NCBI GenBank assembly: GCA_014382295.1
Contig: JACNJZ010000032.1
Span: 1 to 36,517 of the forward strand
Length of the DNA stretch: 36,517 nucleotides
Direction of reading: 5' to 3'
Origin: Candidatus Desulfobia pelagia
Lineage (GTDB): Bacteria; Desulfobacterota; Desulfobulbia; Desulfobulbales; SURF-16
The position numbers were made by a program, and so were the translations under genes. The notes beneath the pieces are model-generated. The model saw only the letters and a list, made by a program, of their open reading frames with translations. It was not told the origin of the DNA and did no database searches. Numbering within the stretch: the stretch's first letter is position 1; each line of letters opens with the position of its first letter. This document shows positions 18,415 to 30,880 of this stretch, one piece after another.

Positions 18415-18565
18415 GTAAATGTTCAGGTAGGGCAACAAACTACCTAAACTCAGTAGGGTAAATGTTTAGGAGTGCCTCATATTAGTTTATTTGGGACTTC
18501 GAAGCATACTCGTGCTATTCGAGAAGGACAAAATAAGCGAAGATGGGGTGCTACTGAACAGTTAC
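18415..18565. repeat. MITE/REPIN-like palindromic element, copy B, with an extra partial end and compact hairpin
   Basis: Core 18458-18565 has imperfect inverted ends GTAAATGTTTAGGAGTGCC...GGGGTGCTACTGAACAGTTAC. An extra GTAAATGTTCAGGTAG end lies at 18415-18430 with hairpin GTTCAGGTAG/CTACCTAAAC (18421-18449). Shares GCGAAGATGGGGTGCT with copy A. Confidence 0.75.
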
Positions 18566-18572
18566 CTTTTCT

Positions 18573-19601
18573 CTATATTCGATGCATCACAATTGAAGAT
18601 GCCATATGGACAGCTGCAACAAGACTTGCAGGATCAGCTTTACCCTGACCGGCTATATCATACGCCGTTCCATGATCAACAGATGTTCTGACAATCGGCA
18701 GACCTATTGTCACATTTACCCCATCTGCAAAATGAAGCAGCTTAAAGGGAATAAGTCCCTGATCATGATACATACAGACCACAGCATCAAACATTCCGCC
18801 TGCTGCCTTATAAAATACCGTATCCGGGGGGTACGGACCATTCACATCAAACCCGACTTTCTGCATATCCTCAACGGCCGGCCCTATTAACGTTTTCTCC
18901 TCATCCCCGAACATTCCGCCTTCACCGGCATGTGGATTAAAACCTGCTACAGCAATGCGTGGTGACTTTATTCCAAAATCGTTTTTCAATGATTCGGCAG
19001 TCAAACGTATCAAATGGACAATCTTTTCAACAGACAAATCATGGGAAACCTGGGCCAGTGCCGCATGGATAGTCACCAATGTAACCCGCAGCTTTTCGCC
19101 GGCCATCATCATTGCATAACTGGAATTTCCGCACAGAGACGCCAGCATCTCAGTATGCCCTGGAAAGGAATACCCTGCGGCATTTAGCGTGCTTTTGGCA
19201 ATGGGACAGGTAACCATGCCCTGCAGACAATTGTCCTGTATCAAACCAACTGCCGCTTCAATATATCCGGCCATGGCTTTTCCGGTATGGCGATCAGGAC
19301 AGCCCCATTTGAGAGATGCACAATTGAGCCCTGAACCTTTATCCGGCTCAAAAACACACACGGCATCATCCCTGACGGCATCACCAGGATTCCAGTCCAC
19401 AATTGACACGGGGATATCCAGTAGGCGGTTAGACCATTCAAGCACAGCCCTGCTCCCAATGACAACAACAGGAAACGGCAGTAAGTCCCTGGATCGCTCT
19501 GATCCGAAGAATTTAAGTATGATCTCAGGGCCTATGCCAACGGGACAGCCCATGGTAATAGCAAGAGGGAGAGATTTATCCATAGGAGAATTCAAAGGCA
19601 T
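18573..19601 (-). CDS. pdxA: 4-hydroxythreonine-4-phosphate dehydrogenase
   Basis: 342 aa; LAITMGCPVGIGPEIILK, SFPGHTEMLA, AGFNPHAGEGGMFGDEE, GPYPPDTVFYKA, MYHDQGLIPFKLLHF. Confidence 0.96.
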   Translation of the reverse strand: MPLNSPMDKSLPLAITMGCPVGIGPEIILKFFGSERSRDLLPFPVVVIGSRAVLEWSNRLLDIPVSIVDWNPGDAVRDDAVCVFEPDKGSGLNCASLKWGCPDRHTGKAMAGYIEAAVGLIQDNCLQGMVTCPIAKSTLNAAGYSFPGHTEMLASLCGNSSYAMMMAGEKLRVTLVTIHAALAQVSHDLSVEKIVHLIRLTAESLKNDFGIKSPRIAVAGFNPHAGEGGMFGDEEKTLIGPAVEDMQKVGFDVNGPYPPDTVFYKAAGGMFDAVVCMYHDQGLIPFKLLHFADGVNVTIGLPIVRTSVDHGTAYDIAGQGKADPASLVAAVHMASSIVMHRI

Positions 19602-29673: not shown

Positions 29674-29753
29674 AGCTCACTCCAGATCTGTCGTTTATTT
29701 TTGGTATGTATCTCTGTTCGCCGAAGCTACTGACTTTCAGGACCCTCAGCTCC

Positions 29754-29862
29754 GTAATCGTTTACCAGTGCGCAAGATTCGCGCAAGCAGGATGGCGAAT
29801 CTATAGCCTGTCTATGTGAGCCAACCTGATCGTGCGAAGATGGGGTGCTGGTGAACGATTAC
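29754..29862. repeat. MITE/REPIN-like palindromic element, copy A (109 bp)
   Basis: GTAATCGTTTACCAGTGCGC...GGGGTGCTGGTGAACGATTAC. Outer 43-nt arms match at 32/43 positions; centre ctatagcctgtctatg is also near-palindromic. Confidence 0.78.
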
Positions 29863-29960
29863 AGATATACTAATGAGAGCGCTACAATACCAAGTTAGCC
29901 CTAACTTGCAAGTGAAAATGAAGCCAATCGCCTGTCAGCCGAGTTATTCTGCTCCCTGTA

Positions 29961-30789: not shown

Positions 30790-30805
30790 CAGCAAACAGT
30801 CTTAA

Positions 30806-30880
30806 AACCACGAAGTTCACGAAGAGCCATTTTTATATTTTCAACACAACAACTTCGTGTCCTTCGTGCTCTTCGTGGTT
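30806..30880. repeat. CACGAAG-family hairpin repeat, copy 2
   Basis: AACCACGAAG (30806-30815) / CTTCGTGGTT (30871-30880) perfect 10-bp inverted repeat with internal TTCACGAAGAG and CTTCGTGTCCTTCGTG, between convergent cooC and flgE. Confidence 0.8.

What the first reader, a model, noticed from the sequence alone, without database searches (positions are those of the whole stretch)
29754..29862. 109-bp near-palindromic MITE/REPIN-like element between ileS and cooC
Seen: GTAATCGTTTACCAGTGCGCAAGATTCGCGCAAGCAGGATGGC and the reverse complement of the other end, GTAATCGTTCACCAGCACCCCATCTTCGCACGATCAGGTTGGC, agree at 32 of 43 positions, so almost the whole element folds on itself. No coding capacity and no obvious target-site duplication. 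Together with the related copy at 18458-18565 it looks like a non-autonomous mobile repeat, possibly moved in trans by a RAYT/IS200-like Y1 transposase (inference; no transposase is in this window).
Basis: partly seen in the sequence, partly recalled or inferred. Interest (0 to 1): 0.6.

Follow-up and report, generated by a model that had tools for sequence, protein, structure and literature searches.

The report
IS66-type mini-transposon family in Desulfobulbales
The two hairpin sequences in this window are copies of a small mobile DNA element with no genes of its own, very probably moved by an IS66-type transposase, found in about 40 places in this genome and across its bacterial order, and its core is odd in folding far better on one strand than on the other.

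Summary
The palindrome at 29754-29862 is real (z = -5.3 against shuffles) and repetitive: 41 places in this genome (model search, E <= 1e-5), and a BLAST match in 36 of 58 related genomes. Outside the order it is nearly absent. It is a MITE, but not a REPIN. It has ends GTAACTATTCAGC...GCTGAAYRGTTAC and 8-bp target duplications (30 of 57 database copies 8/8; shuffled pairings give 0.9 at >= 7/8). Single-ORF IS66 (ISBst12-like) insertion sequences in the same order carry the identical 13-nt ends and 8-bp duplications; one shares 20 nt with the MITE left end. The window's other copy, 18415-18565, has a 7/8 duplication (TTTTTCTC/CTTTTCTC) and splits a gene pair that overlaps or abuts in 18 of 20 relatives. 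Four genomes carry separate insertions in the ileS-cooC gap; the others are empty, so this is not a fixed regulatory RNA. The 29754 copy is old and its duplication is not readable. Unexplained: the 107-nt core hairpin keeps G.T wobbles on one strand (155 G.T against 28 A.C; RNA fold -60.9 against -44.7 kcal/mol), hinting at selection on a single-stranded form.

The parts
29754..29862 (+). palindromic core of a diverged copy (short-form boundary; subfamily with GTAATCG ends); lies in the inferred 5' leader of ileS
   Evidence: model match 94.9 bits, E 4.3e-22
29708..29753 (+). possible degenerate left arm of the long form of the same copy (46 nt, 19/46 identical to the consensus arm); tentative
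   Evidence: shuffle p about 0.005; no target duplication here
18415..18565 (+). second, full-length long-form copy (151 nt) between pdxA and the downstream ATPase gene
   Evidence: core 18458-18565 matches the model at 86.8 bits
18407..18414 (+). left 8-bp target duplication TTTTTCTC of the second copy
   Evidence: 7 of 8 identical to 18566-18573
18566..18573 (+). right 8-bp target duplication CTTTTCTC of the second copy; overlaps the pdxA stop codon by one base
29884..29911 (-). inferred sigma-70-like promoter of ileS (TTGCAA, 16 nt, TATTGT), conserved in relatives, which places the 29754 copy between promoter and start codon
   Evidence: sequence read against 15 relatives; promoter function is inference

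Best explanation
Both window elements are copies of one family of miniature inverted-repeat transposable elements. The transposable unit is about 153 nt (or about 170 nt with an extra 17-nt module): an outer left end GTAACTATTCAGCGAAAAAA..., an inner second copy of that end 46 nt further in, a 107-nt hairpin core, and the right end ...GGGGTGCTGCTGAAYRGTTAC. It encodes nothing. It is most likely cut and inserted in trans by IS66-family transposases of the single-ORF ISBst12-like subgroup, which carry the same 13-nt ends and make the same 8-bp target duplications. Shown here: family, boundaries, duplications, empty sites, shared ends. Inferred: that these transposases act on the MITE. The 29754 copy is an old, diverged member that landed in the leader of ileS.
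For: Copy number: 30 BLAST places for the window core, 56 for the consensus, 81 model hits at 41 distinct places with E <= 1e-5. Order-wide: 36 of 58 relatives; the named records are nearly all Desulfobulbales; in a phylum-wide sample of 395 genomes, 6 match and 5 of those are in the own order. Target duplications: own long forms 9 of 19 at >= 7/8 (shuffled mean 0.5); database copies 39 of 57 at >= 7/8 and 30 at 8/8 (shuffled mean 0.9). Two own short forms also have 8/8 duplications, L010 AAGAAAAT and L011 AAAGAAAG. Autonomous partners: 1.7-kb elements with one 483-489 aa ORF, 8/8 duplications and ends GTAACTATTCAGC (L122, six identical-scoring copies in one genome; L123) or GTAACTATCCAGC (L121); L125 begins GTAACTATTCAGCGAAAAAA, identical over 20 nt to the MITE left end. 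The L121 protein is IS66: PF03050 E 5.7e-47, NF033517 289.7 bits against a cut-off of 180. Literature: ISDge4, an ISBst12-group IS66 element caught transposing, has ends GTGACTACTCAGCA/GTAACTGCTCAGCA, one ORF and an 8-bp repeat (PMC12898284). Empty sites: pdxA and the ATPase gene overlap or abut (-7 to +1 nt) in 18 of 20 relatives but are 166 nt apart here. The ileS-cooC gap carries separate insertions in G001 (opposite orientation, duplication TTGTATTC 8/8), G003 and G011 (7/8 each), and none in the other relatives read.
Against: This genome has no transposase of that subgroup at E <= 1e-20; its only IS66 gene belongs to an element with GTAAGCG ends. MITE-rich relatives mostly lack one too. 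The MITE right subterminal sequence (CAGCACCCCATC) was found in no autonomous element examined. The 29754 copy has no readable target duplication. No transposition was observed.
Confidence: 0.9

Rival explanations
1. REPIN: a pair of inverted REP hairpins moved by a RAYT/Y1 transposase, without target duplication.
For: Palindromic, intergenic, tens of copies; two Y1 transposase genes exist in the genome.
Against: Precise 8-bp target duplications; IS66-type ends shared with IS66 elements; no such ends around the two Y1 genes.
Confidence: 0.02
2. Fixed cis-regulatory RNA of the ileS leader.
For: The element lies between the inferred ileS promoter and ileS; strong hairpin with compensatory changes.
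Against: Absent from most relatives at this site; where present it differs in position and orientation and has its own duplication; about 40 other places in the genome.
Confidence: 0.02
3. The MITE is a mobile unit whose 107-nt core is additionally maintained as a one-strand hairpin, as RNA or as single-stranded DNA, with a function of its own such as shielding neighbours, terminating or processing transcripts, or aiding transposition. (This adds to the best explanation rather than replacing it.)
For: 17 of 33 pairs have changes on both sides, covariation score 0.323 against 0.158 shuffled and 0.04-0.07 slid. G.T over A.C mismatches 155:28, G.T in excess in 26 of 27 genomes, tandem T.G/G.T at core positions 16-17 in 103 and 112 of 116 copies. 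RNA of the + strand is more stable in 114 of 116 copies, -60.9 against -44.7 kcal/mol. In the long form the inner left arm is not an outer end, so its pairing is not needed as a terminal repeat.
Against: No preference of orientation relative to flanking genes (++ 23, -- 35). Copies share ancestry, so cells are not independent, and part of alignment A1 was chosen by a right-end pattern. Short forms with 8/8 duplications show that the inner end can itself be used as an end, which could conserve a left/right difference for the transposase.
Confidence: 0.35

Closest known systems
IS66 family, ISBst12 subgroup (for example ISDge4; L121-L125 in this order)
   Same: 13-nt ends GTAACTATTCAGC (ISDge4 GTAACTGCTCAGCA), 8-bp target duplication; 20-nt identity of one left end
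   Different: The MITE has no ORF, is 107-170 nt, has a second internal copy of the end and a hairpin core not found in the autonomous elements examined
ERIC / RU-1 (127-bp enterobacterial MITE)
   Same: Size, intergenic location, strong hairpin, high copy number within one order (PMC2759123)
   Different: ERIC duplicates TA and has unrelated ends; here 8 bp are duplicated and the ends are IS66-type
REPIN / RAYT system
   Same: Non-autonomous palindromic intergenic repeats (PMC3116915)
   Different: REPINs are linked to Y1 transposases; here there is an 8-bp duplication and a DDE-type partner

Membership tests
MITE | short, non-coding, terminal inverted repeats, high copy number | tested here: met
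   107-170 nt, 41 places in the genome; no ORF of at least 80 aa lies within either element
MITE | target-site duplication and empty sites in relatives | tested here: met
MITE | ends shared with an autonomous transposon | tested here: met
   13-20 nt identical with ISBst12-like IS66 elements, but in other genomes of the order
MITE | mobilised in trans by that transposase | not testable with these tools
   needs a transposition assay
IS66 family (non-autonomous derivative) | ends beginning GTAA and 8-bp duplication | tested here: met
IS66 family (non-autonomous derivative) | internal sequence derived from an IS66 element | tested here: not met
   only the left end matches; the core and right subterminal motif were not found in the IS loci examined. 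So: ends of IS66 type, not shown to be a deletion derivative
REPIN | associated RAYT (Y1) gene flanked by the same repeats | tested here: not met
   two Y1 genes, no such ends nearby
REPIN | no target duplication (from general knowledge) | tested here: not met
   8-bp duplications
Rfam RNA family | match to a curated model | tested here: not met
   no match in the window at gathering threshold

The most novel reading that the evidence does not exclude
The MITE carries a 107-nt hairpin selected as a one-strand structure (RNA, or single-stranded DNA), kept through compensatory and G.U-tolerant changes in many Desulfobulbales genomes: a structured RNA or ssDNA module spread by an IS66-type mini-transposon, with an inner second end that lets the hairpin alone move as well.
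Probability: 0.35. Interest if true: 0.65.

Novelty: new member of a known kind. Interest (0 to 1): 0.42.

Why it matters
It gives Desulfobulbales an ERIC-like dispersed repeat family with a named likely mobiliser, the little-studied ISBst12 branch of IS66, and exact boundaries and duplications. Such copies interrupt tightly packed gene pairs (pdxA-ATPase) and leaders of essential genes (ileS), so they are candidate regulators and assembly breakers. The strand-asymmetric hairpin makes a testable case for selection on a MITE at the RNA or ssDNA level.

Tried and rejected
The IS66 element in the own genome (L031) as parent: rejected, ends GTAAGCGGTTAAGG. Y1 genes as movers: no matching ends. An autonomous element with the MITE right end among 80 named loci: no IS66 gene found near any of them. 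Orientation bias with the flanking genes: none. Plasmid and phage records: no match. Rfam: no match. Solved structures of the transposase: none. Papers on IS66-type MITEs or on MITEs in Desulfobulbales: nothing relevant in the held library, which is not all literature.

Full report
Observation. The palindrome at 29754-29862 exists as described: arms of 46 nt, 74% complementary, folding z = -5.3 against dinucleotide shuffles. The second copy in the window folds with z = -6.4.

The repeat family. BLAST of the window core finds 30 places in the 3.0-Mb, 224-contig genome. A consensus made from these finds 56 matches, some on both strands because the element is palindromic. A covariance model gives 41 distinct places at E <= 1e-5 (my count). 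Own-genome cores are 50-97% identical to each other, median 84%, so several subfamilies and ages are present. Of 58 related genomes 36 carry matches, several with around a hundred candidates. In a phylum-wide sample only one genome outside the order matches. Plasmid and phage collections have none.

Boundaries. The long unit begins GTAACTATTCAGCGAAAAAACTTATAGTTTCGAAAACCACCGAACT and then continues with a second end, GTAACTGTTCAGC, which opens the 107-nt core. At the long boundaries the flanks are 8-bp duplications: 9 of 19 own copies and 39 of 57 database copies match at 7 or 8 of 8 positions, where re-paired flanks give means of 0.5 and 0.9. Some short units also carry 8/8 duplications at the inner boundary (L010, L011, L230), so the inner end can serve as an end.

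The mobiliser. GTAA ends and 8-bp duplications point to IS66. The only IS66 gene of this genome sits in an element with GTAAGCG ends. Elsewhere in the order there are single-ORF IS66 elements of about 1.7 kb with ends GTAACTATTCAGC or GTAACTATCCAGC and perfect 8-bp duplications (L121, L122, L123; L124 with one end varied). L125 shares 20 nt with the MITE left end, but its own flanks do not match. The L121 protein is IS66 by Pfam and NCBIfam. ISDge4, an ISBst12-group element observed to transpose in Deinococcus geothermalis, has the same kind of ends and an 8-bp repeat (PMC12898284). That these enzymes move the MITE is inference from shared ends and duplication length. MITE-rich genomes mostly lack the enzyme, so most copies may be fossils, or the IS was lost or not assembled.

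The two insertions of the window. At 18415-18565 the element with its flanks separates pdxA from an ATPase gene by 166 nt; in 18 of 20 relatives these genes overlap or abut, and two relatives of one genus have an unrelated 121-nt gap. The flanks TTTTTCTC and CTTTTCTC match at 7 of 8. At 29754 the element lies between ileS and cooC, a divergent pair kept through the family. A conserved motif that reads as an ileS promoter (TTGCAA, 16 nt, TATTGT on the minus strand, 29911-29884) places the element in the ileS leader; this is inferred from sequence. The congener G001 has its own insertion in the same gap, in the other orientation, with duplication TTGTATTC 8/8; G003 and G011 have others, 7/8 each by reading; the remaining relatives read have none. 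A fixed regulatory RNA is therefore excluded. The 29754 copy itself has diverged too far to show a duplication; a left arm at 29708 is tentative.

An anomaly. In the core, 17 of 33 pairs show changes on both sides and all covariation measures exceed 500 shuffles and all slid versions. In 116 copies taken from BLAST hits rather than from the right-end pattern, imperfect pairs are G.T on the consensus strand far more often than A.C (155 to 28, leaving out three mostly G.T positions), in 26 of 27 genomes, and the RNA of that strand is more stable in 114 of 116. Neutral decay of a DNA palindrome should give both kinds equally. Selection on a one-strand hairpin would explain it. So might a left/right distinction needed by the transposase, or strand-biased mutation, and shared ancestry inflates the counts. 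Orientation relative to neighbouring genes is not biased. I leave this open and rate it as the most novel reading.

Noticed in passing
window 30805-30880 and 2725-2766: Another intergenic repeat: inverted CCACGAAGTTCACGAAGAGC / AACTTCGTGTCCTTCGTGCTCTTCGTGGT just downstream of cooC, with a 93% identical copy of one arm at 2725-2753.
   Followed up: no
L019, L021, L053, L054, L297, L299, L339 and about 170-nt copies in L151-L230: A 17-nt module GGTAAGCGCAGACTCCG recurs inside the element, in either the left or the right arm; it begins like the GTAAGCG end of other IS66 elements.
   Followed up: partly
L115 895-1881 (G049): A 987-bp element with ends GTAACAGTTTAG holding a shortened IS66 reading frame; looks like an internally deleted IS66 on the way to a non-autonomous form.
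   Followed up: no
L268 and L261, pdxA-ATPase junction: Two relatives of one genus have a 121-nt gap here; in L268 it holds a different palindrome (GGTATTTAGGTTAAAGGCTGAAGG...CCTTCAGCCTAAACACC).
   Followed up: partly
L243 and L259, ileS-cooC gap: Other dispersed palindromes of the type CCACAGAGTTCACAGAGG lie in the same intergenic region, which seems to collect small repeats.
   Followed up: no
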